NCBI GenBank assembly: GCA_918797485.1
Contig: CAKKNE010000004.1
Span: 248,001 to 312,000 of the forward strand
Direction: 5' to 3'
Length of the DNA stretch: 64,000 bases
From: Pelagomonas calceolata
Lineage: Eukaryota; Sar; Pelagophyceae; Pelagomonadales; Pelagomonadaceae
Numbering within the stretch: the first letter of the stretch is position 1; every line of letters begins with the position of its first letter. The notes beneath the pieces are model-generated. The model was not told where the DNA came from. It searched no databases and saw nothing but the letters and a program-made list of their open reading frames with translations. The position numbers were made by a program, and so were the translations under genes. Of the stretch, positions 4,775 through 61,139 are shown piece by piece.

Positions 4775-4789
4775 GTGTGACACACTAGC
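4775..4789 (-). promoter_or_regulatory. Half copy of the promoter palindrome
   Basis: Minus-strand GCTAGTGTGTCACAC, one arm plus core of the window-wide palindrome, about 175 bp upstream of the SDR start codon. The second arm is not evident. Confidence 0.4.
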
Positions 4790-4879
4790 ACCGAGGCTGA
4801 GGCGTCGTTACGCAAACGACGCGCTGCTGATGGAGATACAATAAAGTTACCAAATAAAAGGAGAAAGCGAACGAGCGGC

Positions 4880-5956
4880 TCAAGAACGCCACCGCCGGAA
4901 CGGGTTCCAAGACGACGACGCCGCCGCCGGCCACGGCCGCTCGTTCGCCGCCTTCGCCGCGTCGTCGATCACCGCCAGGAGCGCCTCCATGAATTTCCCC
5001 GTCGCCGTGTTGTGGATGCTGTGACCGCCTTCCACGAACTCCCTTACCTGAACCGAAGGCAGGCGCTTCTGCATGTCCCGAATGCCGTCCGGTCCGTCCC
5101 AATCCGTCACCGTGCCTCCAAACGCCGTGGGCCCCGCGACCCAGAGGTGGACCGAGAACGGCAATGCTTTGTGCGAAGCGAGGGCGTCCCAATTGCGAGT
5201 CGCAGCATCGCAGGCCAGCACGTTCGCGCGCGCGAGCTGCTGCGCTTGCGGGTTCACGTCGCTCCAGTAGCCGCCGCCGGCGATGGGCCGGACCCGCGAC
5301 CCGAGCCAGCCCTGGACGCGGTCGGCCTCGTAGTGCTTCTCGAGGGCCGCGACCGCGTCCTTTTCACTCGCAAATTCCCTATCAAATTCTTCGATCTCCT
5401 CGGTCTCCTGGGGCCGCCGGCCCCACTTCTCGCGGTTCCGGCAGTCCATGTCCTCGACGACGACCGCCGCGAGGCGGTCGGGTGCTTCCCGCGCGGAAAT
5501 CGCCGCCACGGCCATGGCCACGCGGCCGCCCATGCTGTGGCCCACGAGGATCCAAGGTCTCTGAACGCCGTGCTGGACCTCGACGGCGTGGATCACGTCC
5601 CTCGCCAGCGCCTCCGTGGAAAAGCTCGCCGGATCACCGAGCGGGCTCTCGCCGTGGCCGCGCTGGTCGAGCGCCAGCGCGGGCAGGCCCGCCTCGTGCA
5701 GCTTCGGCAATACCTGGTGCCACGTCTGCTTGCTGCTGTCGAGGCCGTGTACCAATACAGTGGTGGGCGTGTTCCTGCCGCGTACGCTCGAGGCGAGCGG
5801 CACGCGCTTATCGCCGCCCAGCGAGAGCGCGCTCGACTGTTGTCCGAGCAGCGCTGCTGCCGGCGCCCATCTAGCAAGCTGCCACAGTCTTGGGCTGGCC
5901 ATGGTGATGAGTGCTACGAGATAGCCAACGAGAGCGCCGACGAGGAGCTGGCGCAT
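4880..5956 (-). CDS. Alpha/beta hydrolase, ABHD11-like
   Basis: 358 residues. N-terminal hydrophobic segment (about 3-20; membrane anchor or signal), then an alpha/beta hydrolase fold: VLVHGLDSSKQTWH (oxyanion region, about 67-80), ALDQRGHGES (about 95-104), nucleophile elbow GHSMGG with S141, and GGHSIHNTATGKF carrying the catalytic His near 318. The LVHGL...HSMGG pattern and 'LALDQRGHGESP' fit the ABHD11/YbfF branch (serine hydrolases acting on lipid or acyl esters). Substrate is inferred only. It shares a divergent promoter region with the thioesterase gene at 6312. Confidence 0.85.
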   Translation of the reverse strand: MRQLLVGALVGYLVALITMASPRLWQLARWAPAAALLGQQSSALSLGGDKRVPLASSVRGRNTPTTVLVHGLDSSKQTWHQVLPKLHEAGLPALALDQRGHGESPLGDPASFSTEALARDVIHAVEVQHGVQRPWILVGHSMGGRVAMAVAAISAREAPDRLAAVVVEDMDCRNREKWGRRPQETEEIEEFDREFASEKDAVAALEKHYEADRVQGWLGSRVRPIAGGGYWSDVNPQAQQLARANVLACDAATRNWDALASHKALPFSVHLWVAGPTAFGGTVTDWDGPDGIRDMQKRLPSVQVREFVEGGHSIHNTATGKFMEALLAVIDDAAKAANERPWPAAASSSWNPFRRWRS

Positions 5957-6039
5957 GTATTTCTATACAGCACTGCACGAATTTGGCGTACAAGCCGCAG
6001 CGAGCTCTGTCCGCAGCTTTTGCTGCCTTGCCAATGGTT

Positions 6040-6063
6040 GCTAGTGTCTTACAGGACGCTAGC
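6040..6063 (+). promoter_or_regulatory. Promoter palindrome copy
   Basis: GCTAG arm, core TGTCTTACAGGACG, then CTAGC arm. It lies in the 355-bp divergent gap, 84 bp from the hydrolase start (5956) and 249 bp from the thioesterase start (6312). Nothing else is recognised in the gap. Confidence 0.7.
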
Positions 6064-6311
6064 TGTCGAGGTTTGGCGCAGAGAGAAATCGGCGCGACGC
6101 AGGCCCCGTCCGCGTGACCGAGTGCCGATCTTCTTTTCTCCGGCGCGGCTTCCACCCGCGGGACCAAAATAAAGCGTTCCTCACCATTTCCTGTCAGTGA
6201 TATTTTCACAAATCAATCCAGCTCCGACGGTCGCTTGCGGGTTGCGTAAGCGCGAGAATAGACAGCCCCGCGCAAGAGAGAGTAGTTAAGCGGTCACGGA
6301 CCCTGCGCAAT

Positions 6312-7173: not shown

Positions 7174-7197
7174 GCTAGTGTCTTACAGGCCGCTAGG
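7174..7197 (+). promoter_or_regulatory. Promoter palindrome copy
   Basis: GCTAG arm, core TGTCTTACAGGCCG, then CTAGG arm. Lies in the 383-bp gap between the thioesterase stop and the HSP70 start, 257 bp before the HSP70 ATG. No other feature is evident in the gap. Confidence 0.7.
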
Positions 7198-7453: not shown

Positions 7454-8683
7454 ATGTCCGGCCACATCCTCATCCTCTTCGTGAGCGTGCTCGTCGCGGT
7501 GTCCGCGGTGCTCAGCGCGTTAGGATTCAAGGGAAGGGTGGAAGTCATCGGCGTCGACCTAGGAACCACGTACAGTGTGGCAGCAGTCTCGGAGAAGGGC
7601 CGGGTCCGAGTCTTCGAGGATCCGGTGCGGGGCAAATTGACAGCGTCGACCGTCGCCTTCCTCCAAGATGGGGGCGTCCTCGTGGGCAATGCCGCGAAGC
7701 GCCACGCGTTGAAGGACCCCAAGAACGTGATTTACGACGCGAAGCGCTTCATTGGCCGCAAGTACGACGACCCGACGGTCGCGGAACAGGCGAAAAAGTA
7801 CGCCTTTGCCGTCGTCGAGAACACGACGACGCACGACGCCGCCTTTCGGGTGCATGGTCGCACAATCGCACCAGCCGAAGTCGGCGCGGAGGTCGTGAAA
7901 GCGCTGCTGAAAACAGTGAACGAGGACCTCGGACACGAGAACGTCAAGCGAGCGGTCATAGCCGTCCCGGCGTCCTTTGGGGCCGCCCAGACCGCGGCGA
8001 CGGGCGAGGCTTTTAAAGCCGCCGGTTTGCGAGTGGCAAGAGTGATGCCGGAGCCGGTGGCCGCCGCTGTTGCTTATGGATTACACAAGAAGGAAAACGT
8101 CCATCATATACTGGTCTTTGACTTTGGCGGGGGTACCCTCGATGTGTCGATACTGTACGTCCAGAAAGGTAGCATAGAGGTCGTCGCGAACGGCGGCGAT
8201 AATGATTTAGGGGGTACCGACTTCGACGGCTGCATAGCGGACGACCTAACGAAGCAAGTCAATGCGGTAGCATCCTCAACGGACTGCGACGATTTCGTGA
8301 CGACGGAACCGTGCGAACCCCATGTGCTCCAGCAGCTCGCCGAGGAGATGAAGGTGCAGGTATCCTCGGTCGATACTGTACAAAGAAAGTGCGCCGCGCG
8401 CACGAAAAAGGGCTGCGAGGAGTTAGAACTCACTCTAACGAAGCAGCGCTTCGAGAAGACGTGTGCCCACCTCTTCCAGCGGGCCCTCAAAACCGTCGAC
8501 GACACGCTGACCAACGGCATGCTCACAAAAAAGGATGTGGACGAAGTGGTGCTGGTCGGCGGCACGAGTCGGGTCCCGCACATGAGGGAATTATTACGGA
8601 AGTCTATTGGAGTGTCCAAACTCAATCTAGAAATAGACCCGGACGTGACGGTCGCCGTCGGCGCGGCGAGCATCCTGGACTGA
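7454..8683 (+). CDS. HSP70-family protein lacking the substrate-binding domain (HSPA13/Stch-like)
   Basis: 409 residues. N-terminal hydrophobic segment (about 4-24, signal peptide or anchor), then an HSP70 ATPase domain: GVDLGTTYSVAAV phosphate-1 motif, RFIGRKYDD, EPVAAAVAYG, FDFGGGTLDVSIL phosphate-2 motif, GGTDFD, and VGGTSRVPHMRELL adenosine motif. The chain stops right after the nucleotide-binding domain (VAVGAASILD). A signal peptide plus ATPase-only layout is that of HSPA13/Stch, an ER or microsomal protein that regulates translocation or proteostasis. Orthology is inferred from architecture. Confidence 0.88.
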   Translation: MSGHILILFVSVLVAVSAVLSALGFKGRVEVIGVDLGTTYSVAAVSEKGRVRVFEDPVRGKLTASTVAFLQDGGVLVGNAAKRHALKDPKNVIYDAKRFIGRKYDDPTVAEQAKKYAFAVVENTTTHDAAFRVHGRTIAPAEVGAEVVKALLKTVNEDLGHENVKRAVIAVPASFGAAQTAATGEAFKAAGLRVARVMPEPVAAAVAYGLHKKENVHHILVFDFGGGTLDVSILYVQKGSIEVVANGGDNDLGGTDFDGCIADDLTKQVNAVASSTDCDDFVTTEPCEPHVLQQLAEEMKVQVSSVDTVQRKCAARTKKGCEELELTLTKQRFEKTCAHLFQRALKTVDDTLTNGMLTKKDVDEVVLVGGTSRVPHMRELLRKSIGVSKLNLEIDPDVTVAVGAASILD

Positions 8684-8804: not shown

Positions 8805-9047
8805 CTAGACGAAGTCGTCGTCGTCGTAGACCCTCTGCGGGTTGGACGGCCGGTAGAACCGCGCGCAGGCGCACTTGATCTCCCCGTCGTCGCGGTGCAG
8901 GCCCCCGTAGTCGTAGCGCTGCATGTAGTACGTGAGCACCACGAGGATGGTATAGAGGCCGGCGATCTGTAAAACCCGTTTTGTCCCTCGCAACTTACTC
9001 ACGCGAGCCGCGAGGGTGGGGAAGAGGGAAGGGAGGGAGTATTTCAT
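8805..9047 (-). CDS. Possible small membrane protein
   Basis: Low-certainty gene. The C-terminal part contains one hydrophobic helix (IAGLYTILVVLTYYM) and an acidic end (RVYDDDDFV). A 36-nt segment starting with a strong donor GTGAGTAAG (9002) and ending TTTTACAG (8967) sits in frame just before the helix. It may be a very short intron, or the acceptor of a longer one whose first exon includes the 9044-9274 stretch (residues DRVLVYEELSGPKPLSSF); the phases also fit in that case. No family recognised. Confidence 0.3.
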   Translation of the reverse strand: MKYSLPSLFPTLAARVSKLRGTKRVLQIAGLYTILVVLTYYMQRYDYGGLHRDDGEIKCACARFYRPSNPQRVYDDDDFV

Positions 9048-10545: not shown

Positions 10546-10569
10546 GCTAGTGTGTTACAGGCCGCTAGC
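10546..10569 (+). promoter_or_regulatory. Promoter palindrome copy
   Basis: GCTAG arm, core TGTGTTACAGGCCG, then CTAGC arm, 203 bp upstream of the STRAP ATG on the minus strand and just downstream of the glycosyltransferase-like gene. Confidence 0.7.
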
Positions 10570-10651
10570 CAAACTAGTGCTAGCTCCGTAAAAATATTAG
10601 CAAACGTCAGCACCGTAACAAGTCGGTTTTATAGTAAAAATTCACATCATA

Positions 10652-12054: not shown

Positions 12055-12078
12055 GCTAGTGTCTTACAGGCCGCTAGC
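12055..12078 (+). promoter_or_regulatory. Promoter palindrome copy
   Basis: Perfect-looking copy: GCTAG, TGTCTTACAGGCCG, CTAGC. It lies in the 425-bp divergent gap, 63 bp from the glycosyltransferase-like start (11992) and 340 bp before the gene at 12418. Confidence 0.75.
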
Positions 12079-16510: not shown

Positions 16511-17028
16511 CTTGCTAACCCTTGCGCGCGCGCACGCGCCGCGTGGCAGACAGGCCTCCTTGGGAGTTTGGCTGCGGCCGCGTTTCTCTGGTGCAGCGCT
16601 CGACTACTGGCTGCACGCGTCGTGAAGGCAGCGCTACGCTATTTTCTTAGCACAATGGAGCAATGCTCCAGTCGTAATGGCCAAAGCGAGAGGCGGCGGC
16701 TTTGCTTATTTTTAGAGGCAGGCGAGATGGACCAATCGATTTCCCTTCACTGAGTAGCGCAGGCGTCCGGAGAGCTCTGTCTTGACTCGTCATCACCCTC
16801 TTTGTTATATTGAGCTAGTTATAACACACTAGAGATCCCCCAAAACAGCACTGTTGTGCCGCTAGATCACTGCAGTAGCCGGTGCAGACGCATACGGTGC
16901 GAGATATTACTTGTTGGGACAGCTGCGTCCGGTGCGCAAAGCAGGAGCTGCTAGTTTTGGCGCCCTGCACTGTTCACAGCAGTCTCAGCCAGGGCAGCGC
17001 TATCTGCGCAAGCGCTATCACTGCAGCA
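16511..17028. other. Divergent intergenic region with a weak palindrome copy
   Basis: 518 bp between the SEC31 and LRR gene starts. The only structured signal is GCTAGTTATAACACACTAG at 16814-16832, a diverged copy of the promoter palindrome (304 bp and 196 bp from the two start codons). An in-frame extension of the LRR gene to 16882 has no family resemblance and is taken as leader. Confidence 0.5.
16814..16833 (-). promoter_or_regulatory. Degenerate promoter palindrome copy
   Basis: GCTAG arm and CACACTAG arm retained; the inner GGCC/TGTAAG portion is diverged and four bases shorter than the full copies. Confidence 0.4.
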
Positions 17029-22822: not shown

Positions 22823-23271
22823 GGGGCAGCCTCCTCTATGAATGCGTCGTTTGCCGTGCGCAAGCACGTGCGCTCGGATGAATGCGATCTATGCGCGATG
22901 CGTGCAGGGCGGCGTTGCGTTGCGCGCCGCTCGCACGCGTTTGTTTCCGCTGCCCAGTGTGGTGAGATGTCGGAGACGAGCGGTCATTGGGGGAAAGACC
23001 AGTCCAGTGAGGTCTCCTGGAAGCCTGGAAGAGAAATATCTCCGCCGGAATACTCGAATCCAGACAAAACGGGTTTGACTAGTATGTTGCTACACTAGAT
23101 GATCAGCCCAAAAATCGCGGCTTTGGCTGTCTGCGCCAATATCGCTGCCTTCCGCGGCTCTATAATACGCTCAGACATTCATAAATCACAGCGCTGCAAC
23201 GTGAGAGCACCGCGCTGCAAGCCGCATAGCTTTTAAGCAGCAGCCTCGCCTCGCCGACGCCGCGCGCCGCC
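22823..23271. other. Divergent intergenic region
   Basis: 449 bp between the O-fucosyltransferase-like and DBP5 starts. A GCTGCCCCATGG leader lies at the minus-strand start codon. A degenerate palindrome (CTAG-TATGTTGCTACA-CTAG) lies at 23079-23097. No credible coding frame. Confidence 0.45.
23079..23097 (+). promoter_or_regulatory. Degenerate promoter palindrome copy
   Basis: CTAG arms flank a short core ending in TACA. It is 174 bp before the DBP5 ATG and 257 bp from the opposite start. Confidence 0.35.
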
Positions 23272-25762: not shown

Positions 25763-25786
25763 GCTAATGTCTTACAGGCCACTAGG
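25763..25786 (+). promoter_or_regulatory. Promoter palindrome copy
   Basis: GCTAA arm, core TGTCTTACAGGCCA, then CTAGG arm. In the 650-bp divergent gap, 211 bp from the ShKT gene start and 417 bp from the gene at 26203. Nothing else is recognised in the gap. Confidence 0.65.
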
Positions 25787-27849: not shown

Positions 27850-27873
27850 GCTAGTGTCTTAGTCCGCTTAGCT
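27850..27873 (+). promoter_or_regulatory. Promoter palindrome copy (variant)
   Basis: GCTAG arm, core TGTCTTAGTCCG, then CTTAGC arm, 258 bp before the small gene at 28131. A GCGTCGATGGCGTG block lies about 40 bp upstream (near 27809). The 424-bp gap holds nothing else recognisable. Confidence 0.55.
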
Positions 27874-33425: not shown

Positions 33426-33433
33426 CCTCGACC

Positions 33434-34743: not shown

Positions 34744-34754
34744 TGCTTGAACCG

Positions 34755-34995: not shown

Positions 34996-35019
34996 GCTAG
35001 CGGCATGTGAGACACTAGC
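34996..35019 (-). promoter_or_regulatory. Promoter palindrome copy
   Basis: Reverse orientation: GCTAG, CGGCATGTGAGACA, CTAGC; 253 bp upstream of the cyclophilin ATG. Confidence 0.65.
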
Positions 35020-35834: not shown

Positions 35835-35858
35835 GCTAGCGTCTTGTAAGACACTAGC
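35835..35858 (-). promoter_or_regulatory. Promoter palindrome copy
   Basis: Reverse orientation: GCTAG, CGTCTTGTAAGACA, CTAGC; 228 bp before the gene at 36086. The centre (TGTCTTACAAGACG on the other strand) is nearly a perfect palindrome here. Confidence 0.65.
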
Positions 35859-36085: not shown

Positions 36086-37541
36086 ATGAAGCAACGCCGC
36101 AGACGCACGAGTTGTGCTACCGCGAAGCTCGTCGCCGCCGTCGCCGTCGCCCTCTACGTCTACGTCATCATCAGACTCCACCCACACACTCCGCGCCACT
36201 ACGACGGGCCGCAGCTCGGCGAGACGGGCGACGGCTTCGACGCCACGGGCGAAACTGATGACGACGCCGACGCCATCCACCTCGTCTTCTCGACGGACTG
36301 CGGGGGCTACCAGCACTGGCAGGCCATTTCGAGCTGGTACGCGTCGCTGGCGGCGGGCCACCGCGGGCCCGTCACGAGGATCGCGAGCGGCTGCTCCGCC
36401 GAGCAGGCGGCGAAAATCCGGGCGGAGTTCGCGCGCATCGACAAGACGGGCCGCCTCCGCCTCCATGCGGCACCGTCCACAGCAATCGGCGGCTACAAGT
36501 ACAGCAACAAGCCCGGCGGCCTCGTGCACTTTTTGCAGCACGCGCCCGTCGACGCTAGGTTCGTGGCCCTCGTGGATCCCGACATGCTCATGATCAAGCC
36601 GCTGACGTTGGATGTGGGGCGGGGGACGCGGCGGCCGCGCGGCACGAAGCTGACGGAATACGTCGTCGACGGCGTCGCGGCGGCGCTGAGCGTCTTTGGG
36701 GATTTGCCGGGGCATGTGGCCCACGGCGCGCCCGCGGGCCAGCACTTCGGCGTCGGCGGCGCGTGGCAGCGTGCGGGCCCCGGCGCGCGGCCGGCCTGGG
36801 CGGGCTTCAGCAAGGCCGCCGTCTGTGGCGCGGGCGCGCCGTGCACGCCTGTGTGGAAATCAACCAGTGAGTTAGGTTACGGGGACAACGTCGCGTCGAT
36901 GGCGTGGGGCGTCCGAAAGTTGATCTCCACACAGGTGCACGCGGACGACGGCGAAGGAGGCCGACGAGAAATTTGCCGTGGGACCGGTTTATATTGCTCA
37001 CGTCGACGACTGGAAAAATCTAGCGCCGGCGTGGTGGGCGGCCATGCCTAGAGTTCATGAGCAGTACCCGCATCTCCTCGCCGAAATGTATGCGTTAACG
37101 ATGAGCGCCGCAAACATGACGACACCGTGGTCGCAGCTGTCGTCATATATGGTGAGTGACCCTCGGACCATGTCTCCGACCGAGGCCTGGGCGTGGATCG
37201 ACGATTTAGCGACGCGCGAGGGGCCGGGAGCCGTCTGCGCCGGCGCCACGGCGACGACGCTGCCCGCCGCGACGCGCGACCGGTCGCGCGTCGCGCTGCC
37301 AGTGTTCCTGCACTTTTGCCAAAGATACGAGCTCGCGGGGTATTTCTTCGCCAAGAGGCGGCTTGACCACGGCTTCTTTGGGTGTGGGAGTGAACCACTC
37401 CGATTTGATGCTGACGCGATCATCGGCGGCCTCGGGGGCTCCCCGTCGACCACTGCGGTTCGAACGGCCTTTATGCTCTGCCACATCATCCCGATGATGA
37501 ATTCATTTCTAGCCTCGTACAAACGGGACGCCTGTGATTAA
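36086..37541 (+). CDS. Golgi glycosyltransferase of the HPAT / peptidyl-serine galactosyltransferase type, two exons
   Basis: Exons 36086-36840 and 36935-37541 give 453 residues in exact phase. Type II membrane protein: basic start (MKQRRRRTSC), one helix (TAKLVAAVAVALYVYVIIRL), stem, then catalytic domain with HLVFSTDCGGYQHWQAISSW and GPVTRIASGC (typical opening of hydroxyproline O-arabinosyltransferases and serine galactosyltransferases), DPDMLMIKPL as the DxD metal site, and later PVYIAHVDDWKNLAPAWW. These enzymes glycosylate Hyp/Ser-rich secreted proteins. The intron is an introner. Confidence 0.78.
36841..36934 (+). mobile_element. Introner element forming an intron, perfect duplication (IE4)
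   Basis: 94-nt intron. The element proper (36849-36934) has ends CTGTGTGGAAATC and GATCTCCACACAG. An exact 8-bp duplication GTGCACGC lies at 36841-36848 and 36935-36942. The donor is the GT of the first copy, the acceptor is the element's CAG, so splicing restores the pre-insertion exon precisely (APC-TRTTAKEADEKF). Confidence 0.93.
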
Positions 37542-38565: not shown

Positions 38566-38589
38566 GCTAGCGGCATGTAACACACTAGC
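38566..38589 (-). promoter_or_regulatory. Promoter palindrome copy
   Basis: GCTAG, CGGCATGTAACACA, CTAGC in reverse orientation, centred in a 212-bp divergent gap: 88 bp from the 2H gene start and 102 bp from the GT92 gene start. Confidence 0.7.
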
Positions 38590-41464: not shown

Positions 41465-41489
41465 CCTAGTGTCTTTACAGGACGCTAGC
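41465..41489 (+). promoter_or_regulatory. Promoter palindrome copy
   Basis: CCTAG, TGTCTTTACAGGACG, CTAGC with one extra T. It sits midway in a 194-bp divergent gap, 87 and 84 bp from the two start codons. Confidence 0.7.
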
Positions 41490-44500: not shown

Positions 44501-46032
44501 CGTAACCAGAGGGGCCAGGCAGGTGGCGTATATGCTCGGTTAGCCGTCGGTGGAGTTTTCCTGCAGTCGCGCTTTGACGCACCAAGGATCGCAGAGTGCG
44601 CCCTAAAAGTCGCTGCCATGGCCCAGCGCTGCGTGTGCGGTAGGAGCGAGGGTGGCGACTACGTGAAGTGTGCTGGCGGCGGGCGCTGTCACGGGTTCGT
44701 GCATCGTCGCTGCGTCGGATTAAAAGCTGACGAAGATGTTCCTGAAGGTTGGCTCTGCCCTTTGTGCGACACGAGCGGTGTTGCCGCGAAGCTCTCGGTT
44801 CACGGCGACGGCCCGCTGGCCAAATCTTCGCCTCTCATCGGTCGGGTCCTACTTCAGGCGCAAGGTGACGACGACGACGACGGCGCCGCTCAGGCGCCAC
44901 TGTTGTTGCGTGCGGTCGGCGCGAGAAAACAGCGCGGCGGAGAAGTTCTAGTGCGCTGCGTAGCCCTCTTCGGCGAGGGCGATGAGACGTATGAAATTAG
45001 CGAGGCGACCGCTCGCCGCGCTGCAATTAGGCGCGAGACGGCTGAAGCGCAGGCCATGGTGGCGATGCACGCCAGGGGCGGCAAGTACACCTTCCACACG
45101 ACTACGGAAGATTGCAATGTGTGCGCGCATTGCCTTGGCCTGTGTGGAAATCAAAATTTTACGGCGCGTTCGTGCTGAATCATCGCGTCGTCCTCCACGC
45201 CATCGACACGACGCCTGCTCGATGGCGTGGCGATGCCGGTTCCTCGCCGCTCGACCGAGCCAGGTCGGCCGCGTCATCGCCGAGAAATGACTTAGTGACG
45301 AATTGTCGTGCACCCGACACACTGATTGATTTCCACACAGGCCTCGATAAACCTAGCAATGGCGGCACCGGCACCCTTAAACGAGCGTGCATAGCGAAAG
45401 ATGATGAGCGCGCCGTAGCATTATTGTATCTCGCCTCGGGCGCGCCACCGCCGGGCGGAGGTCAGTGGGCAACGCACGGCGCCGCGCCGCCGCCGGCCAC
45501 GACACCGCAGCGCAAACACGTCTACTGGGACAATGATCGCGGGGAGCCCGACGACTCGGACGATGAAGAAGGCTTCGTCAAGAAGGATGCGCGCGTCGTC
45601 GCACCCTGGATCGACGGGCAGTGGTATTCTGCGACGATCGTACACGTGGGTCACCGGACCGCTCGCGTGGCGTTCGAAGATGGAACGATTCACACTGTGC
45701 AGCGCTCCGAGCTCCTCGAGGACGACCGCTCCTCGCGACGAAGCGTCGCAAAAAAGGTCGTCACTCCGGCCAAGCCGCGGCCCGCGCCACCGCCTCCGCC
45801 GCCGCCGCCGCCGCCGCCGCGGCCGACGGGGCCGTGCGCGATCTGCATGTCGACGATCGACGACGGCGCGCACGTGCTGCAGTGCGGCCACGCCTTCCAC
45901 GCGAGCTGCCTGCGCGACATGTCGGATGTTGTGCGCATCGCGTCGGCCACGAGACGCTCCCGAGGGGTCGCGTGCCCGCTCTGCCGCAAGGTGACGCGCG
46001 CCGAAGTAGGCGTCGACGCCGACGAGGCCTAG
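41573..46032 (+). CDS. Tudor-like / MBD / PHD / RING protein, copy 1
   Basis: Exons 41573-45131 and 45341-46032 give 1416 residues. Order: repeats of YA.QHALVAAP (about 37-75); helical, possibly SAM-like stretch (113-175); Tudor-like VGALVDADFQARGHYFPAII (196-245); acidic linker; three SFPVGSWVR...RTILCDDG modules; an MBD-like domain near 843-905 (LASGWTFSYKTRMF, GDRYFHPPDGGKQLRS, MAEVARWHGL); PHD near 1018-1066 (CVCGRSEGGDYVKC, CHGFVHRRCVG, GWLCPLC); Tudor-like KDARVVAPWIDGQWYSATIV; poly-Pro; C-terminal RING near 1350-1403 (CAICMSTIDDGAHVLQCGHA, CPLCRKV). Predicted nuclear chromatin reader with E3 ubiquitin ligase activity. Tandem paralogue at 46362. Confidence 0.8.
45132..45340 (+). mobile_element. 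Introner element, long form, making a GC-AG intron (IE5)
   Basis: 209 nt. Perfect ends CTGTGTGGAAATC / GATTTCCACACAG. The only donor that keeps the frame and matches the paralogue is the GC of GCCTTGGC (45132), giving AHC-LDKPSNGG against AHCLDAPRNGG in copy 2. The sequence after the acceptor, GCCTCGAT, is a partly decayed duplication. The interior closely matches the element at 32796-33001 but lies in the opposite orientation to its host gene. The paralogous gene has no intron here. Confidence 0.88.
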
Positions 46033-46171: not shown

Positions 46172-46194
46172 GCTAGTGTCTTACGGCCGCTAGA
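46172..46194 (+). promoter_or_regulatory. Promoter palindrome copy
   Basis: GCTAG, TGTCTTACGGCCG, CTAGA; 168 bp upstream of the second PHD-RING gene in the 329-bp gap between the tandem copies. No other feature in that gap. Confidence 0.65.
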
Positions 46195-46361: not shown

Positions 46362-49300
46362 ATGCACAGCGAAGGCGAGCAAGCCGTGCCGGTCGATGCG
46401 GATCAAGCCGTGCCGCCGGTGAACGCGGAGCAAGCTATGCCGCCGGTGATTCACGCGCAGCCTCCGCCGCGCTCGGCAGGCGAGCCGGTGATTCACGCGC
46501 AGCCTCCGCTAAGCTCGGCGGCAGGCGAGGCTCTCCAAGCGCGGCTCGACGAGGTGATCTGCGTTCACATCTTGGACCGCAATCCGGCAGGAGGAATGCA
46601 AGTCATTAGGAATCGCTTCACATCTTGCGACGGCACGGCAATGCGACAGTTCGTCGTGACCTCGACGGGCGGCGTCCGGTGCGCCATCTGCTGCGACAAC
46701 GACGCGCCATTCGTACTGTCTTCGCGGACTCCATTAGTGACGCAGTTGCATGATATGAAGAAGCACTGCGGCCAGTACGAGTCCGAACGGGGTCAGCCTC
46801 AGACGCGGACCCACCTCCAACTACTTCGCCTGCTGCTTGAGGGCGCGCTGCACGAGGCGCCCGCCGAGGCGCCCGTCGAGCCCGAGGCGCCCGTCGAGCC
46901 CGAGGCGCCCGCCGAGGCGCCTATTCCTGAACCGGTCGCGGCCGACGACTCCGACGCGGATGACGAGGGACCCTGGCCGCAGCCGGGCCAGGTCGTCGAG
47001 GTCGTCTGGACCAAGGGGACGACGCTCGAGAACCCGGGCGAAGACGGCGTGGATGGCGTGGATAGGTGTGTGGTAGAATCGATCTGGGGTCTCAAACCAC
47101 AAAAGCGCCGCGGTTCAGGCTACCAGTGCTACGCGAAGCTGCAGTCGCTCATCAGGCTCGCGGGCGACGCGGACGAGCCGTACAAGATCGTGTCGGCGGA
47201 TGATCCGCGGCCGAAGCACGTCCACCTGAAGCACAAATTAGTAGATGCCGGCGAAGGGCGGACGTGGCGCATCCTCGCGCCCGCGACCGCCAACGAGTTA
47301 CTCGACCGCGTTGCTTCAAGTGCTGCCGCGGTGTCCGACGAGGCGCCGCTCCCTCCACCGGAAGACGTCGACGTCGTGGCGCCTCCAGTCGCTGAGATGG
47401 CGATCGAGGCGATGCCCGAGGAGCCGGCGGCCGCCGCTGAGGCGACGCCCGCCCCGGCGCGGCCGCCGAAGCGCGCGCGCGAGGAGAGCGAGTCCGACAC
47501 CGAAGCGCCGGCCGAGCCCGACGTTTCTGGGGACGACGAGCCCGTTGATGGCGCGGCATCGTTTCCCGTGGGGTCTTGGGTGCGGCATGCAACGACGGGA
47601 GCGAAGGGCGTCGTCGTCAGCGTCTACGATGGGAAAAGGTCTGTCCTCTGCGACGACAAGGCGCACAACTGGGGCCTAGGCATGATCCAGTCTGCGCCGG
47701 GCGCCCCGCCGGAGGCCATCGCCGCTGTGGCAGCGGCACGCTACGCAAAGCGAGGTGATTGGGTGCGCGACGAACAGACGGGGAAGAAGGGCGTCATCGT
47801 CGAGATCATTCCAAAGGGCCGGCGGACCATCCTCTGCGACAACGACGAAGAGTTGAAGCGGACTACCTCCGAGTTCCGCATCGCCAGCGGCGCCCCGCCC
47901 GCGGCCCTCGTCGCCAAGGCTGCCGCGTGGCGCAAAACAGCAAAGAAAAAAATGGCCCCACCGCCACCGCGGAAGCGCGCCGCGCCGGCCGACGCCGAGT
48001 CCTCGCGGCCACCTCCGCAGCGGCCGACGCCGCAGCATCCGTTCGCCGTCGGTGAGCTCGTCGCGGACATTGACGCGCCGGAGCACGCGCTCGAGGTCGT
48101 CTCCGTCGACGGCGGCACGTACACGCTCAAGTATCGCGACGCTGGCGCCTGGCGGGGCCAGGAGGTGTCGCGAGGGCGGGAAAATCTCGCCGCCTTCGGG
48201 TCCGCGCTGCCGCGGCGGCGGCGTGTGGCAGCGCCCCCCGCGCCGAAGGCGAAGCCGCCGCCGCCAGCGCCGACGAAGAAGAAGAAGCCGGCGGCGAAGA
48301 AGGCGCGGCGCGTCACGCAACCGCCCGCCGCGGCCAGACCGGCGAACGCTCCTGAAGGGGCCGTCTTCGACCACGCGGCGCAACTGCACGGAAAGTGGGT
48401 GTCACCGTGGCGCCGGGGCGGACCCAAGGGCCCGGCGCCGCTCTGGTGTAAATGGCACGACGACATGGACCTCGCGGAGGACGACGACGCGGACACGCCG
48501 CTCGGGAGAGGCTGTTGGGAGGTGCAGTGGTCGGATCGTACCGCGTCGTATCTCGCTCGAGACGACGTGCGCGTGTGCGTGCCGACGCGCGAGCGCCTCA
48601 AGGCCGAGGCCCAAGCGCCGACCCCGACTTCTACAAAGCGCGCGCGCCGCGTGACCGAGTCGCCGCAAGCGCCGCCGCCACGTCCGCGGCCGCCGACGCC
48701 CCCACCTGCGCCGGCGCCCGAGCCGGCGACGGACGATGACGAGTCCTACGACGAGTTCGGGCCCGGAGCCAAGGTCGTCGCGCCCGCCAGCGACGGAAAA
48801 GTCTACCGCGCGACCGTCGTCCAAGCGTACAAAAATGCGTTACGAGTACAGTGGGAGGACGGCGCCATCGACAGCGCGCCGCGCGAGGAGTGCGAACTCC
48901 TCGAGCGGGCGCCGAAGCGGGTCCGCATCACGGACGAGGACAAGCGCGAGCGGCGCCGCGAGCAGCAGGAGCTCCGCGACATGGCCCAGCACGACACGCC
49001 CGCTCTTTTATTATTATTGGAGCGGCGCGCGATGGCGCTACATGACAAGCCGCGCCAGCGGGCGGCGGCTTTGCGCGCCGCGCGACCTGTCGAGCGCCGC
49101 GACTGGTATGGCGACATCACGGCGGTGAAAGACGGCCTCATCGTCCGCGCGCGCAAGGAGGACGAGAACGTGAATGGATGCTGCGTGCGCCTCGCCGTCG
49201 GCGGCGTCTTCCTGTCGTCGCAGTTCAGTTCCGCGAAAGAGGGCGAGGCGGCGCTAGTCGCGGCGGCCACGGCGCAGCGCTGCGTCTGCGGCCGACACGA

Positions 49301-50705
49301 TACAGGCGGCGGCGATTACGTGAAGTGCGCCGGAGGCGCGACCGGTCGCTGCCGCGGCTTCGTGCACCGCCGCTGCGTCGGGCTGAAAGCTGACGCGATT
49401 GTGTCGGAAGATTGGCTTTGCCCGCTGTGTGACGATAGCGTTGCGACCAGGCTCTCGGTCCACGGCGGCCCGCTGGCGACACCGCTCATCGGACGCGTCC
49501 TTCTGCAGACGCCTGGTGCCACCATGGCTGCCCCGTCAGCGCCTCTACTGTTACGCGCCGTCGGCGCGAGGACGCGGCCCGAGGCCGTGACCGCTGATGC
49601 GACCAAGTCGCCTCCGTCCGGCAGCCGCGTCGCTGTGACGTTCGACTGCGGTGAAGAATACGAAGGGACGGTGGACGACGTGCTTGATGACAAAAGTGCC
49701 ATGATAGATTTCGACGACGGCCAGAGCGAGAAGGTGAACTTTACGGAGGGAGGCGTGCGACTGATCTCGGGCAACGATGTCGTCGTGCGGTGCGTGGCGC
49801 TCGTCGGCGACGGCGACGAGTCGTGGGAATTAAGCGAGGCGGCCGCGCGGCACGCGGCCCTCCGGCGCGAGACGGCCGAGCTCCAATCGCAAATGGCCAT
49901 GCTGTCGCGGGGTGGGAAATATGTTTTCCATACCACGACGCCCAACTGCGAGTGCTGTGCTCACTGCCTTGACGCGCCGCGGAACGGCGGGCCTGGAACG
50001 CTAAAAAAGGCCTGCATCGAGAAGGACGGCGAGCGCGCAATCGCGCTCTTGCACCTCGCGAGCGGCGCGCAGCCACCGGGCGGCGGGCGCTGGCTCACGC
50101 ACAACCTCAAGGCGCCGAATAAACCGCGGCCGGCGAAGTCGCCGTCGCGAGCGTTCGACCCGAACAGCCTGCCAGTCTTCGATCCGAATGACGAGGACGT
50201 TTTCGGGCGCGGTGCCAAGGTCGTGGCGCCGTATACCGATGGGCACTGCTACCGAGCCACTGTTGTCCGTGCTCAACAAAACTGTGTTCGCGTGATCTTC
50301 GAGGACGGGACGCCGCATACCTGCCAGCGATCGGAGCTCGATTTGGACGACAGCCCTGTGGGCGGCGGCGGGGGCGACGCGGACGACGCGGGCGACGACG
50401 AGAAGGCGACGCCGCCTCCAAAGAGTGCGACGCGGCCGAAGAAGCGTCCGAAGCTGTCAGCCCCTACGCCGCCGCCTCCTCCTGCACGGGTGGCGCCGTC
50501 GGAGCCGTGCGCCATCTGCATGTCGATGATCGACGCCGACGAGGCGCATGTGCTCCAATGTTCTCACGCCTTTCACGCCGACTGCCTTCGTCAGATGGCG
50601 GGCCACGTGCGGCTCTCGTCGCATACGCGGCGTTCGATCACGGTGAGCTGTCCGCTCTGCCGGAAAGTGACGCGCGCGGAAGTGGGCGTCGACGCCGAGG
50701 CCTGA
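46362..50705 (+). CDS. Tudor-like / PHD / RING protein, copy 2
   Basis: 1447 residues, single exon, from the ATG at 46362. The N-terminus differs from copy 1: VIHAQPPPRSAGEP-type repeats, then a zinc-finger-like block (CAICCDNDAPFVLSSRTPLV then LHDMKKHCG). Shared parts: SFPVGSWVRHATTGAKGVVV, KRGDWVRDEQTGKKGVIVEI, a module ending DVRVCVPTRERLKAEAQ, PHD near 973-1027 (CVCGRHDTGGGDYVKC, GFVHRRCVGL, DWLCPLC) and C-terminal RING near 1382-1440 (CAICMSMIDADEAHVLQC, HADCLRQM, CPLCRKVTRAEVGVDAEA). It has extra Tudor-like modules (GAKVVAPASDGKVYRATVVQ; SRVAVTFDCGEEYEGTVDDV) but no MBD-like domain. Likely a chromatin-associated E3 ligase. Function unproven. Confidence 0.8.
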   Translation: MHSEGEQAVPVDADQAVPPVNAEQAMPPVIHAQPPPRSAGEPVIHAQPPLSSAAGEALQARLDEVICVHILDRNPAGGMQVIRNRFTSCDGTAMRQFVVTSTGGVRCAICCDNDAPFVLSSRTPLVTQLHDMKKHCGQYESERGQPQTRTHLQLLRLLLEGALHEAPAEAPVEPEAPVEPEAPAEAPIPEPVAADDSDADDEGPWPQPGQVVEVVWTKGTTLENPGEDGVDGVDRCVVESIWGLKPQKRRGSGYQCYAKLQSLIRLAGDADEPYKIVSADDPRPKHVHLKHKLVDAGEGRTWRILAPATANELLDRVASSAAAVSDEAPLPPPEDVDVVAPPVAEMAIEAMPEEPAAAAEATPAPARPPKRAREESESDTEAPAEPDVSGDDEPVDGAASFPVGSWVRHATTGAKGVVVSVYDGKRSVLCDDKAHNWGLGMIQSAPGAPPEAIAAVAAARYAKRGDWVRDEQTGKKGVIVEIIPKGRRTILCDNDEELKRTTSEFRIASGAPPAALVAKAAAWRKTAKKKMAPPPPRKRAAPADAESSRPPPQRPTPQHPFAVGELVADIDAPEHALEVVSVDGGTYTLKYRDAGAWRGQEVSRGRENLAAFGSALPRRRRVAAPPAPKAKPPPPAPTKKKKPAAKKARRVTQPPAAARPANAPEGAVFDHAAQLHGKWVSPWRRGGPKGPAPLWCKWHDDMDLAEDDDADTPLGRGCWEVQWSDRTASYLARDDVRVCVPTRERLKAEAQAPTPTSTKRARRVTESPQAPPPRPRPPTPPPAPAPEPATDDDESYDEFGPGAKVVAPASDGKVYRATVVQAYKNALRVQWEDGAIDSAPREECELLERAPKRVRITDEDKRERRREQQELRDMAQHDTPALLLLLERRAMALHDKPRQRAAALRAARPVERRDWYGDITAVKDGLIVRARKEDENVNGCCVRLAVGGVFLSSQFSSAKEGEAALVAAATAQRCVCGRHDTGGGDYVKCAGGATGRCRGFVHRRCVGLKADAIVSEDWLCPLCDDSVATRLSVHGGPLATPLIGRVLLQTPGATMAAPSAPLLLRAVGARTRPEAVTADATKSPPSGSRVAVTFDCGEEYEGTVDDVLDDKSAMIDFDDGQSEKVNFTEGGVRLISGNDVVVRCVALVGDGDESWELSEAAARHAALRRETAELQSQMAMLSRGGKYVFHTTTPNCECCAHCLDAPRNGGPGTLKKACIEKDGERAIALLHLASGAQPPGGGRWLTHNLKAPNKPRPAKSPSRAFDPNSLPVFDPNDEDVFGRGAKVVAPYTDGHCYRATVVRAQQNCVRVIFEDGTPHTCQRSELDLDDSPVGGGGGDADDAGDDEKATPPPKSATRPKKRPKLSAPTPPPPPARVAPSEPCAICMSMIDADEAHVLQCSHAFHADCLRQMAGHVRLSSHTRRSITVSCPLCRKVTRAEVGVDAEA
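46855..46925 (+). repeat. Coding minisatellite in PHD-RING copy 2
   Basis: GAGGCGCCCGTCGAGCCC-type units repeated in frame, encoding EAPAEAP and EPEAPVEP repeats. Probably length-variable linker. Confidence 0.7.
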
Positions 50706-51945: not shown

Positions 51946-51970
51946 GCCTAGTGTCTTACAGGGCGCTAGC
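51946..51970 (+). promoter_or_regulatory. Promoter palindrome copy
   Basis: GCCTAG, TGTCTTACAGGGCG, CTAGC in the 588-bp divergent gap: 217 bp from the MPDU1 start and 348 bp from the vWA gene start. No other feature is recognised there. Confidence 0.65.
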
Positions 51971-54522: not shown

Positions 54523-54546
54523 GCTAGAGTCTTACATGACGCTAGC
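54523..54546 (+). promoter_or_regulatory. Promoter palindrome copy
   Basis: GCTAG, AGTCTTACATGACG, CTAGC in a 425-bp divergent gap; 145 bp from the DUF4116 start and 259 bp from the CCCH-WD40 start. Confidence 0.65.
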
Positions 54547-56154: not shown

Positions 56155-56343
56155 TTATGATTCCTCGCGGGCGCGGAGGCTTGCTCGCGCGGCTGGCAAG
56201 ACCCATTCAATTTGCTCTGTGAGGGGATGTGTGCCGCCGAACACCCGCCGCGCGATCCGTCTCGCGTCCTCTAGCGTCGTCACGGCCTCGCGGAGATCGT
56301 CGAGGGTGGGGCCGGTGTCCTGGCACTGCCAGTGGCAGAGCAC
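56155..56343 (-). pseudogene. TPR-protein C-terminal fragment, inverted
   Basis: A 62-residue frame, GPTLDDLREAVTTLEDARRI then ARRVFGGTHPLTEQIEW, matches the C-terminus of the plus-strand TPR gene next to it (GATLDDFREAVATLAEIERT, ARRVFGGTHPLTEGFG). The rest of the gene is missing. The two are head to head, as left by an inverted duplication with deletion. Confidence 0.7.
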
Positions 56344-57143
56344 CCGCCCGTCACGTTTCGTGTCTGGCGGAACAGGCGAAGATTTTGGTCGCAGAGGCCC
56401 TGGAGAACAATTTGAGTGACAAGGCGTTGAATGAGAGGTGGGATCGGTGGCAGACGTGTAGCCTGTGCGGGCAAGACTATCACGGCGTCGTGGAGTGCGC
56501 GCTCGCGTGGGCGTGCTGGAAGACGTACGTGGGTCGGCCGGAGGGGGACCACCTGCGGTACCCTGCGATGACCCTGCTTGGCAACGGTTTATCCAATGCA
56601 GGCCACAGCGAGGAGGCGTTGTCCGTGTACGAGGCCGAGTTGTCTATGAAACGGCGCATTGGCGTATCAGAAGAAAGCATTCTTGTCACGCAGAGTAATC
56701 TTGCGGTCACGTACGAAAAAATTGGACGTCATGAGTGCGCCCTGCGCTTACGGCACGATGTATACTCCGGACGTGTTGGGCTCCACGGCGAGAAAGCGAC
56801 AGAGACCCTCGTACCGGCCTACAACTACGCGGTGTCCCTTAAAGACCTACAGCGCTTCGAAGAGGTCAAGTCGGTGCTCCGCAGAGCAATACCCGTGTCG
56901 CGACGCACTCTTGGAGAGGGGTGTGATTCCACGCTCTCGATGCGGTCGCTTTACGCGGAGGCGCTCTGCAGGGACCCCGGCGCCACACTCGACGATTTCC
57001 GCGAGGCCGTGGCGACGCTCGCGGAGATTGAACGGACCGCACGGCGCGTGTTCGGTGGCACGCACCCGCTCACAGAAGGGTTTGGGCACAATCTGTCCGA
57101 GGCTCGAGGCGCGCTCCGCGCCCGCGAAAGGCTAGACGCATAA
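56229..57143 (+). CDS. TPR (kinesin-light-chain-like) repeat protein, probably 5'-truncated
   Basis: From about 56370 the frame matches an algal TPR_12-type family: NERWDRWQTCSLCGQDYHGV, VECALAWACWKTYVGRPEGD, LLGNGLSNAGHSEEALSVYE, VTQSNLAVTYEKIGRHECAL, AYNYAVSLKDLQRFEEVKSV, then the DDFREAVATL and GGTHPLTEG end. The first about 45 residues from the ATG at 56229 are Arg/Pro-rich and overlap the inverted fragment, so the original N-terminus seems lost. TPRs bind proteins; the C-x2-C-x3-H segment may bind zinc. It may be expressed in shortened form. Confidence 0.6.
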   Translation: MCRRTPAARSVSRPLASSRPRGDRRGWGRCPGTASGRAPARHVSCLAEQAKILVAEALENNLSDKALNERWDRWQTCSLCGQDYHGVVECALAWACWKTYVGRPEGDHLRYPAMTLLGNGLSNAGHSEEALSVYEAELSMKRRIGVSEESILVTQSNLAVTYEKIGRHECALRLRHDVYSGRVGLHGEKATETLVPAYNYAVSLKDLQRFEEVKSVLRRAIPVSRRTLGEGCDSTLSMRSLYAEALCRDPGATLDDFREAVATLAEIERTARRVFGGTHPLTEGFGHNLSEARGALRARERLDA

Positions 57144-59116: not shown

Positions 59117-59138
59117 GCTAGTGTCTTACAGCCGCTAG
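59117..59138 (+). promoter_or_regulatory. Promoter palindrome copy (prolyl hydroxylase side)
   Basis: GCTAG, TGTCTTACAGCCG, CTAGA; 206 bp upstream of the prolyl 4-hydroxylase ATG (58911). Confidence 0.7.
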
Positions 59139-59461
59139 ATAATGCATCTTGGCGACCCTTAGGAGCCGATGCGCTTTGATATATCCAGGCGCTTTAGGTC
59201 GAGAATTATTGGTAGCGTGTCTACGTACGGGTTGAACGATGGTCACGCCACGGCCCCACAAGGCGCTGGCAGTCGTTGTAACGACGTCCGCCGGCACCGG
59301 AAGAACTCGTCCATGGAGAGTGGCATTGCTCTCAGACGATTTTTTATTCTTCGGAGATCGACCAGTCGGATTCGCGCTTGAGTGAGCGCGCACAGATAGC
59401 GCCAAATCGTTTCAGTCTACCGCCGAAACGCCGCCAAAAAACGCAAAAATACCGATAAAAA

Positions 59462-59481
59462 CCTAGCGGTAAGACACTAGC
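59462..59481 (-). promoter_or_regulatory. Promoter palindrome copy (membrane-protein side)
   Basis: Reverse orientation, CCTAG, CGGTAAGACA, CTAGC; 207 bp before the gene at 59688. It is in opposite orientation to the copy at 59117, so each divergent gene has its own copy at the same distance. Nothing else is seen in the 776-bp gap. Confidence 0.7.
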
Positions 59482-59687
59482 AAGCTCTGCGATCCGGCGC
59501 CTTCTGGCTGCCCCGGACGCGTAGGGCCAGCTGGACGCGCGCCAGACACGTGCGGCAAGCGAGGAGGCGTCTGCCAGACACGAGTTCATTGGGGCTGCAA
59601 AGGGGCAGCGTAACGATTTCATACATTACACCTGCTGCCTGCTGCCTTGGCTGCGGCCAGGCTGCCAGCCACAGCCACACAGCATAG

Positions 59688-60167
59688 ATGGCCGTCTGCT
59701 GCTGCTTTCACCGGACACCGAAGAGCCGGCTTTGTAGCCTCCTATTCACATTGGCAATTGTCGTCGCGCTGCACGTGTTCGCGTTCTTCGCGAAATTCCA
59801 CGCCAGTCGGCAAGTGCACCATTGCAACAATTACGGCTGCGGGTCCAAGGAACATTTTTACCTAGCAGTCATCGTGATGTGTTTCGTCGCGGAGTTTCTT
59901 TATCTCCTCGCGTTTGCCTTCCCCAAGTACATTTGCCCGGTCGACCCCCGCGAAGAGCCGCCGACAATTCCGGCCACGAGCGACGAGGTCCGCGCGATCT
60001 ACCGACCGATGGCCGCGTGGTATCGGGCGCCGGCGCGCGACGCGCTGCGGAGGCATAACGGCGAGTTTCCGCCGACGTCCGAGGCGCTCTTGGCCTGGAA
60101 GTCGTTCGAAGCCGTGACGACGGCGTTCCTCGAAGATCAGCCTGCGGGCGCCGCCGCCCGAGTTTGA
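59688..60167 (+). CDS. Small two-helix membrane protein
   Basis: 159 residues. Cys-rich start (MAVCCCFHRTPK), helix 1 (LLFTLAIVVALHVFAFFAKF), a short loop with two Cys (HHCNNYGCGSKEH), helix 2 (FYLAVIVMCFVAEFLYLLAF), then a soluble tail with a possible helix (SEALLAWKSFEAVTTAFLED). No family recognised. The N-terminal Cys cluster could be palmitoylated (inference). Stop is 42 bp from the CCDC12 stop. Confidence 0.6.
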   Translation: MAVCCCFHRTPKSRLCSLLFTLAIVVALHVFAFFAKFHASRQVHHCNNYGCGSKEHFYLAVIVMCFVAEFLYLLAFAFPKYICPVDPREEPPTIPATSDEVRAIYRPMAAWYRAPARDALRRHNGEFPPTSEALLAWKSFEAVTTAFLEDQPAGAAARV

Positions 60168-60209
60168 TACCGTTTCATGGCGTTCCGTCGCCTTCACTAC
60201 GTAAATTCA

Positions 60210-60629
60210 TTATTGCCTAGCCTCCGCCTTCAGCCGCTCCCGCAGGATCTCGACGATCGCCTTCTGCGTCCGCTTCCGGAGGACCTCGGCGCGCGGCTCG
60301 AGGTCGCGCTTCAGGTCCCAGTTCGGGTCGCGGGGCACGACGTTCAGCGCGCCCTCGGGCTCGTCCGCTTGAATGCGACTGAGCTCCGCGTCGAAGGCGC
60401 TCGGCGCCGGCGCCGGCGCCGCCGGCGTGTCTCCGTCGTCCTCGTCCGCAACCGGCGGCGGCGGCGGCGCCTGGAGCTCGGGGAGCGGCGGCGGCTCGAA
60501 GGCCGGGGCGAGTTCCTCGGACTGCGGCAGATAATTGCGGAACTTCAGCTTCTTCTCGCCGCCGACCTTGTCGTCGCGCGCGGCCCGCAAAGCCTTGAGC
60601 CTCGCTTTCCGCTCGGCGGCGGACTCCAT
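60210..60629 (-). CDS. CCDC12: CCDC12 / Cwf18, spliceosome component
   Basis: 139 residues. N-terminal coiled coil (ERKARLKALRAARD), KLKFRNYLPQSEELAP, a Pro-rich middle, then PRDPNWDLKRDLEPRAEVLR and KRTQKAIVEILRERLKAEAR, a close match to the CCDC12/Cwf18 family signature (PxxPxWDLKRD...LxKRTQxAIxEIIRERL). The protein belongs to the NTC-related/B-complex spliceosome. The ATG at 60629 is chosen; an in-frame upstream extension is leader. Confidence 0.9.
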   Translation of the reverse strand: MESAAERKARLKALRAARDDKVGGEKKLKFRNYLPQSEELAPAFEPPPLPELQAPPPPPVADEDDGDTPAAPAPAPSAFDAELSRIQADEPEGALNVVPRDPNWDLKRDLEPRAEVLRKRTQKAIVEILRERLKAEARQ

Positions 60630-61116
60630 GCCTGCGTGAGCGGGGGACGTTAGGACGGCGCGGCAGGCGGTCGCTCCCGCGCCGTCAGACATATGCACCC
60701 CCGACAATTGGTCTCCCCCGCCTTTGACAACCGAGTAAGACCACAGAAAGGCCAAAAACGGATAACACTGGACGGGGTCTGCTGCTGTGCGGGCGCTCGG
60801 ATTAGCTTGGCCAGTACGATCACAACACATACAGTGTTCATATGACACGCATGAATGAAGTTGTGGGCATTTGTCTTCATCGCGCTTTTCGCAGCAGTGT
60901 TTTGGGGTGACGTCTTCTCTGGTTTGCGGACGCGGCGGCGCGCCGCGGCGACGGCGTGAGGCTGTGCTGCAGCAGTGGGCGAGCCGTCCGCGCCGGCCCG
61001 AGCGATGCGTGCAGTGCGCGGCAGCGCTTCAGAACGACGAATCAACGTATGCGGTCGCGCCTTGCGCAACAAAGCCCGTCGCGCCGGCGCTTTTTGGCAA
61101 TTATTTTTGGTGGCGA

Positions 61117-61139
61117 GCTAGCGGCCTGAAGACACTAGC
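61117..61139 (-). promoter_or_regulatory. Promoter palindrome copy
   Basis: Reverse orientation, GCTAG, CGGCCTGAAGACA, CTAGC, in the 774-bp divergent gap: 265 bp before the myosin ATG and 488 bp from CCDC12. No other feature found in the gap. Confidence 0.65.

What the first reader, a model, noticed from the sequence alone, without database searches (positions are those of the whole stretch)
4775..61139. A roughly 24-bp palindrome marks promoters of unrelated genes
About 19 copies of GCTAG + TGTCTTACAGGCCG + CTAGC (either orientation) occur in the window. Nearly all lie in 5' intergenic DNA, most 60-350 bp from a start codon. None was seen in the tail-to-tail gaps or inside confident coding exons. 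In the 59-kb gap each divergent gene has its own copy at about 206 bp. Genes served include housekeeping ones (HSP70, STRAP, MPDU1, CCDC12/myosin) and secretory ones. This looks like a core promoter or factor site general to this genome, not known to me from other algae.
Basis: partly seen in the sequence, partly recalled or inferred. Interest (0 to 1): 0.85.

Follow-up and report, generated by a model that had tools for sequence, protein, structure and literature searches.

The report
Palindromic promoter element of an alga
A roughly 24-base near-palindrome sits just upstream of most genes in this stretch of a eukaryotic (probably pelagophyte algal) genome and looks like the docking site of a general gene-regulating protein that is not yet identified.

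Summary
The window holds 15 firm copies of GCTAGTGTCTTACAGGCCGCTAGC, 3 intermediate and 3 weak ones. None of the 21 lies inside my gene models. All 21 lie in gaps that hold a 5' end: 12 of 12 head-to-head gaps (10 by firm copies) and 6 of 9 tandem gaps (3 by firm copies) have one, 0 of 11 tail-to-tail gaps. Nearest start codons are 62-264 bp away. Pieces of this element are the top over-represented words of the upstream gaps, and TATAWA is rare there. The element recurs, in the same position class where that can be told, on eight eukaryotic contigs that contaminate a Spirochaeta MAG, and not on that MAG's bacterial contigs. Most flanks are not shared, target-site duplications show no excess, and changes inside the arms are not compensated; this argues against a mobile repeat and against an RNA hairpin. 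Orientation relative to the gene is mixed and total length varies from 20 to 25. Best reading: an orientation-independent duplex-DNA site for a dimeric or multi-finger general regulatory factor at TATA-poor, often bidirectional promoters. No factor, TSS or chromatin data were available. It is a new member of a known kind.

The parts
3538..3559 (-). intermediate member GCTAGTATGTCGCTACGCTAGA, 172 bp upstream of the argininosuccinate-lyase gene (- strand)
4769..4789 (-). weak: left half site with degenerate right arm, 168 bp upstream of SDR gene start (4600, hand-set)
   Evidence: below simulated maxima
6040..6063 (+). firm site in head-to-head gap, 83/248 bp from the two starts
7174..7197 (+). 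firm site 256 bp upstream of HSP70-family gene (tandem gap)
10546..10569 (+). firm site 202 bp upstream of STRAP-like WD40 gene (tandem gap)
10579..10601 (-). weak: A/T-richer look-alike right beside the previous site
   Evidence: 13.1-15.0, below simulated maxima
12055..12078 (+). firm, consensus copy in head-to-head gap, 62/339 bp
16814..16833 (-). weak 20-nt member TCTAGTGTGTTATAACTAGC in head-to-head gap, 303/195 bp
   Evidence: 15.1-16.8, below simulated maxima
23078..23099 (.). intermediate member in head-to-head gap, 255/172 bp
25763..25786 (+). firm site in head-to-head gap, 210/416 bp (left gene start hand-set)
27850..27872 (+). intermediate copy 258 bp upstream of a weakly predicted gene (28131)
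34996..35019 (-). firm site 252 bp upstream of cyclophilin gene; long head-to-head gap with two sites
35835..35858 (-). firm, nearly perfect palindrome 227 bp upstream of gene at 36086; same gap
38566..38589 (-). firm site in 212-bp head-to-head gap, 87/101 bp
41465..41489 (+). firm 25-nt variant in 194-bp head-to-head gap, 86/83 bp
46172..46194 (+). firm 23-nt variant 167 bp upstream of the second Tudor/RING-like gene
51947..51970 (+). firm site with longer shared left flank, head-to-head gap 217/347 bp
54523..54546 (+). firm site in head-to-head gap, 144/257 bp
59117..59139 (+). firm 23-nt site 205 bp from the start of the 2OG-oxygenase gene
59462..59481 (-). firm 20-nt site 206 bp from the start of the opposite gene (59688)
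61117..61139 (-). firm 23-nt site between cwf18/CCDC12 (487 bp) and myosin (264 bp)

Best explanation
The element is a double-stranded DNA binding site for one sequence-specific general regulatory factor that probably contacts two CTAG-containing half-sites (left CTAGTGTCTTA, right CGCTAG), as a dimer or with separate finger groups. Bound about 60-260 bp upstream of start codons, it would keep the promoter free of nucleosomes and recruit the transcription machinery to TATA-poor promoters, in both directions where genes are head to head. Shown: the sequence, its abundance, its placement only in 5' gaps, mixed orientation, sharp edges in most copies, variable length, no excess of duplications, no compensatory changes, rarity of TATAWA. 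Inferred: that a protein binds it, that the protein is one general factor, that it opens chromatin and activates rather than insulates or represses.
For: Placement: 21 of 21 window sites in 5' gaps; 12 of 12 head-to-head and 6 of 9 tandem gaps have one (firm sites only: 10 of 12 and 3 of 9), 0 of 11 tail-to-tail, 0 in gene spans. A matrix trained on contig sites puts its 20 best window places all in 5' gaps. In the two longest head-to-head gaps (1,342 and 777 bp) each gene has its own copy, at 252/227 and 205/206 bp; the third (774 bp) has one. Contigs: 13 sites on 8 eukaryotic contigs of G001; 9 in predicted 5' gaps, 2 in predicted introns that are better read as 5' gaps (on L015 the upstream frame ends in a stop before the site; on L013 the first exon is a doubtful 11 bp), 2 too near contig ends to assign; 0 in coding exons, 0 in tail-to-tail gaps. 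Word search in 20 upstream gaps (the 2-kb gap 31579-33672 left out): ACACTAG in 15, 0.78 expected, and the top 7- and 8-mers are pieces of the element; TATAWA facing a gene in 2 of 20. About 31 bits lie in the two arms, partly by construction. The upstream regions of paralogous genes 24 and 25 have the element as their best local match.
Against: No binding, TSS, chromatin or expression data. Three of 21 upstream gaps have no copy even counting weak ones; 8 of 21 have no firm copy. On the contigs 4 of 8 head-to-head gaps lack a site, by eye. Gene models are home-made; with the first parameter set tandem genes were fused and sites such as 7174 and 10546 fell in 'introns', and I changed parameters because the fusions joined unrelated Pfam families. 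Left flanks are slightly more alike than shuffled ones (mean score 1.66 against 1.36; 2 of 528 pairs at 9 or more against 0), which a bare binding site need not show. No orthologous promoter from another species could be compared, so selective constraint is not shown directly.
Confidence: 0.72

Rival explanations
1. It is a true core promoter element: general transcription factors contact it directly and it fixes the start site, as TATA or Inr does.
For: High frequency, TATA-poor promoters, a gap with near-identical spacing 205/206 bp.
Against: Mixed orientation, start-codon distances 62-264 bp, single copies between divergent genes. 5'-UTR lengths are unknown, so a constant TSS distance is not excluded.
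Confidence: 0.12
2. It is a short interspersed palindromic repeat, a remnant or minimal form of a mobile element that inserts into open promoter DNA.
For: Many near-identical copies; a slight excess of left-flank similarity, with pairs 25763/L015:461 and 51947/L013/L015:2198 among the most alike; open 5' gaps are favoured targets of some transposons (recalled).
Against: Most flank pairs are no more alike than shuffled ones and right flanks show no clear excess; no excess of flanking direct repeats of 3-8 bp over 33 sites (4-bp: 3 against 1.3 expected, 16% of nulls as high); length changes lie in the centre while arms are kept; usually one copy per promoter.
Confidence: 0.07
3. It is a chromatin boundary or a replication-origin element that happens to lie in 5' gaps.
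For: Located between genes, mostly head to head.
Against: Two copies in the two longest divergent gaps sit near each gene, several tandem genes have their own copy, none seen in tail-to-tail gaps; one copy per about 3 kb is dense for origins.
Confidence: 0.06
4. It acts as an RNA or single-strand hairpin in the 5' leader.
For: Outer pairs can form: positions 2-4 complementary in 32 of 32 (partly by construction), position 5 in 30, position 7 in 25.
Against: Position 6 is T opposite G in 28 of 32, position 8 T opposite C in 17 of 32, and the G7-to-A changes (4 of 32) keep C opposite: no compensation. Orientation relative to the gene is mixed. No Rfam match in the window.
Confidence: 0.03

Closest known systems
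CGCG element (TCTCGCGAGA) of vertebrate CpG-island promoters (PMC6192621: abstract and section list seen); BANP as its binder (PMC10206803 and others: search listing only)
   Same: Palindromic, TATA-less promoters, many housekeeping genes, bidirectional transcription
   Different: 10 bp, CpG-centred and methylation-sensitive; here 20-25 bp, two CTAG arms, variable centre, unknown factor, activity untested
Yeast general regulatory factor sites (Abf1, Reb1, Rap1, Cbf1) (recalled; PMC6602560, PMC8163841 seen as search listings)
   Same: Long information-rich sites upstream of many unrelated genes in a gene-dense genome
   Different: Sequence unrelated as far as recalled; no factor identified here
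Oomycete Inr/FPR element and other Phytophthora motifs (PMC3520976, PMC11267843: passages seen)
   Same: Stramenopile promoter motifs; canonical TATA boxes said to be lacking
   Different: Inr/FPR is a start-site element; 'ctag' at the start of a word has 0 occurrences in either main text (motif logos are not searchable)
Human M4 motif, a THAP11 site (PMC5006282: search listing only)
   Same: General promoter motif over many unrelated genes
   Different: ACTAYRNNNCCCR, a different and non-palindromic sequence

Membership tests
General regulatory factor (GRF) promoter site | Long, information-rich motif at many promoters of unrelated genes | tested here: met
   18 of 21 upstream gaps (13 by firm copies), about 31 bits
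General regulatory factor (GRF) promoter site | Absent from coding DNA | tested here: met
   0 of 21 in gene spans
General regulatory factor (GRF) promoter site | Absent from 3'-3' gaps | tested here: inconclusive
   0 of 11 gaps, but only 1,109 bp
General regulatory factor (GRF) promoter site | Works in either orientation | tested here: inconclusive
   Both orientations occur (8 with, 10 against); function untested
General regulatory factor (GRF) promoter site | Bound by a factor that makes a nucleosome-depleted region | not testable with these tools
   Needs MNase/ATAC and pull-down
CGCG/BANP element | Sequence TCTCGCGAGA | tested here: not met
   Consensus has no CGCG core
Core promoter element (TATA/Inr/DPE type) | Fixed orientation and fixed distance to TSS | tested here: inconclusive
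   Orientation mixed, start-codon distance 62-264 bp; TSS unknown
MITE or other transposable element | Target-site duplications | tested here: not met
   No excess over shifted controls, 33 sites
MITE or other transposable element | Shared body of tens to hundreds of bp | tested here: not met
   Similarity ends near the arms in most of 528 pairs; slight left-flank excess
Structured RNA element | Compensatory base-pair changes | tested here: not met
   Inner pairs often mismatched and uncompensated

The most novel reading that the evidence does not exclude
In this algal lineage (probably pelagophytes) one long CTAG palindrome, read by a lineage-specific factor, is the main mark that defines a Pol II promoter genome-wide, in place of TATA-type signals, and one copy can define two divergent promoters.
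Probability: 0.3. Interest if true: 0.8.

Novelty: new member of a known kind. Interest (0 to 1): 0.6.

Why it matters
As far as my searches show, promoter grammar is hardly described in pelagophytes, which include abundant ocean picoplankton and brown-tide algae. A common, long and easily recognised element would give a handle for annotating start sites, building expression vectors and fishing out the factor. It would also test how often lineages arrive independently at a single general promoter-opening site.

Tried and rejected
Viral origin or spread: the strict pattern had 0 hits in viral contigs. A looser pattern gave 19 hits; all have other centres and none is a full copy, read as chance. 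RNA hairpin, mobile repeat and known-RNA readings were tested and not supported. CTAG avoidance outside the sites: weak (63 observed against 74 expected in gene spans, 33 against 24 in gaps), not used. The weight matrix mixed two registers for + and - sites (an error of mine found on re-checking) and is replaced; alone would have called 10579 strong and did not list 3538, 23078 or 16814 among its 45 best. The text library holds none of three 14-15-letter pieces. Of four 9-12-letter pieces at least one is in 151 papers, 30 listed; by title none of the 30 is about algal promoters, 121 were not seen. No paper on pelagophyte promoter motifs appeared in the listings; two searches returned mostly irrelevant papers because few terms were required, so this is weak evidence of absence. 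The Pelagomonas genome paper has no word beginning 'motif', 'promoter' or 'palindrom' in its main text. The L009 copy was left out of the placement counts because that contig is bacterial apart from an odd end.
Full report
What was checked. The finding says that about 19 copies of a 24-bp palindrome mark promoters. The consensus GCTAGTGTCTTACAGGCCGCTAGC at up to 3 mismatches gives 10 matches and none in 100 dinucleotide shuffles. With insertions and deletions there are 15 copies at up to 6 edits, and none below 7.0 in two simulations. Two weight matrices, one trained on 13 contig sites and one on 14 window sites, were run against 40 simulated windows (this replaces, whose matrix mixed two registers). 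Fifteen window sites beat every simulation under both matrices, three (3538, 23078, 27850) under one, and three (16814, 10579, 4769) under neither. The contig sites were first found with the window consensus, so the contig-trained test is not wholly independent. The broader pattern CTAGTRT-n3..11-YRCTAG has 15 places in the window, 0 in 30 simulations, 11 on the eukaryotic contigs and 0 on the bacterial ones, but was written after seeing variants.

Anatomy. Over 32 aligned sites (18 window, 13 on G001 contigs, 1 on L009; 4769, 10579 and 16814 not included) the arms carry about 19.7 and 11.5 bits. The CTAG boxes are nearly invariant, partly because the search patterns demand them. The next bases differ between arms, so the element is a palindrome in its outer five bases and only partly inside. 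Length is 24 in 16, 23 in 7, 22 in 6, 20 in 2 and 25 in 1 of 32; length changes fall in the centre. A T is common just outside each arm.

Setting. No whole genome is held for the window. I wrote a small gene finder trained on Pfam-supported frames. With the first parameters it fused tandem genes across what look like promoters; with stricter intron costs it separated them. I then edited by hand: genes 3 and 4 split, the start of gene 15, genes 23 and 31 added, and a small 3' piece (8805-9047) joined to gene 7. If that piece were its own gene there would be one more tandem gap without a site. Pfam supports many of the 33 models, among them argininosuccinate lyase, HSP70, WD40 proteins, DEAD helicase, cyclophilin, DnaJ, cwf18 and myosin. 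All 21 sites lie outside gene spans and in gaps with a 5' end: 12 of 12 head-to-head gaps and 6 of 9 tandem gaps have one; firm sites alone serve 10 of 12 and 3 of 9; the 11 tail-to-tail gaps have none. Those 11 gaps total only 1,109 bp, where about two sites would be expected, so their emptiness is suggestive only. The chance that 15 firm sites all miss gene spans is about 2e-11 under uniform placement.

Copies follow promoters. In the two longest head-to-head gaps one site lies near each gene, at 252 and 227 bp and at 205 and 206 bp; a third gap of 774 bp has one site. In the two gaps of about 200 bp one site lies midway, 87/101 and 86/83 bp. Where one gene is clearly served (tandem gaps, two-copy gaps and contigs) 8 sites run with their gene and 10 against it: in the window with 3538, 4769, 7174, 10579, 27850, 34996, 46172 and against 10546, 35835, 59117, 59462; on contigs with L043:2947 and against all four on L015, L016:2685 and L032:5363 (tallied by eye). 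Among words in 20 upstream gaps the top 7- and 8-mers are pieces of this element; TATAWA facing a gene occurs in 2 of 20.

Other DNA. A scan of the bacterial and archaeal genome collection gave three contigs, all in bins titled Spirochaeta, from marine samples judging by their names. Of 104 contigs examined from one bin (G001, which has at least 182), eight (73 kb) resemble the window in tetranucleotide use (r 0.82-0.91) and not the bacterial contigs; I read them as contaminating eukaryotic DNA. They carry 13 sites. Ninety-three other contigs (1.30 Mb) carry none at 6 edits or fewer, and three more carry one poor 6-edit match each. Nine of the 13 sites are in predicted 5' gaps, 2 in predicted introns better read as 5' gaps, 2 too near contig ends; none in coding exons or tail-to-tail gaps. 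Four of 8 head-to-head gaps on these contigs lack a site by eye, so the element is common, not universal.

What organism. The window has 63% GC, about one gene per 1.9 kb (33 models), and introner-like repeats with inverted ends. The Pelagomonas calceolata paper gives 63% GC, 16,667 genes in 32.4 Mb and an intron length peak near 210 bp as in introner elements (PMC9481584, passages seen). I infer a pelagophyte, quite possibly this species; this is not shown.

What it is not. Over 528 pairs of 33 sites, right flanks are hardly more alike than shuffled ones (mean 1.11 against 0.99); left flanks are slightly more alike (1.66 against 1.36), led by 25763 with L015:461 and by 51947 with L013 and L015:2198. 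There is no excess of flanking direct repeats. Inner arm positions are often mismatched without compensation. The paralogous genes 24 and 25 (59% identity in the best blocks) have upstream regions whose best local match is the element.

Mechanism. The simplest account is a docking site for a general regulatory factor that reads the DNA duplex through two half-sites with a flexible centre and opens promoters in either direction. It would work like the vertebrate CGCG element, reported to drive bidirectional transcription from TATA-less promoters (PMC6192621, abstract), and like yeast general regulatory factor sites (recalled). It is not a member of the CGCG family by sequence. The factor, the activity and the chromatin effect are inferred.

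Noticed in passing
window 32790-33502, 36848-36936, 45155-45340, 4024-4054; L016 1484-1541 and 2330-2403; G001:C146: Introner-like repeats ending TTGATTTCCACACAG with inverted-repeat ends, shared in short stretches between the window and the eukaryotic contigs at about 81-96% identity.
   Followed up: partly
L013-L016, L032, L040, L043, L062 (G001, record 'Spirochaeta sp. isolate MED672'): Eight eukaryotic contigs contaminate a Spirochaeta MAG held in the genome collection.
   Followed up: partly
L009 1-3500 (G002 contig 13): Near one end of an otherwise bacterial 77-kb contig lies a perfect copy of the element in CTAG-richer DNA; possible assembly chimera.
   Followed up: no
window 41573-46032 and 46362-50705: Tandem paralogous large genes with weak Tudor and, in the second, RING matches.
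   Followed up: no
window 7454-8683: HSP70-family gene that appears to encode only the ATPase domain (profile 1-369 of 599) behind a hydrophobic N-terminus; resembles Stch/HSPA13 (recalled).
   Followed up: no
window 56216-56325 and 56967-57076: 110-nt inverted repeat, 80% complementary, overlapping the WD40/TPR gene model.
   Followed up: no
window 51947; L013 9064; L015 2198: Sub-group of sites with first base C and a longer shared left flank (about GGGATG just outside the arm); may be a composite site.
   Followed up: partly
L015 7635-7654; L062 2126-2147: Further degenerate look-alikes (16.9 and 10.0) upstream of genes on the contigs, not counted as sites.
   Followed up: no
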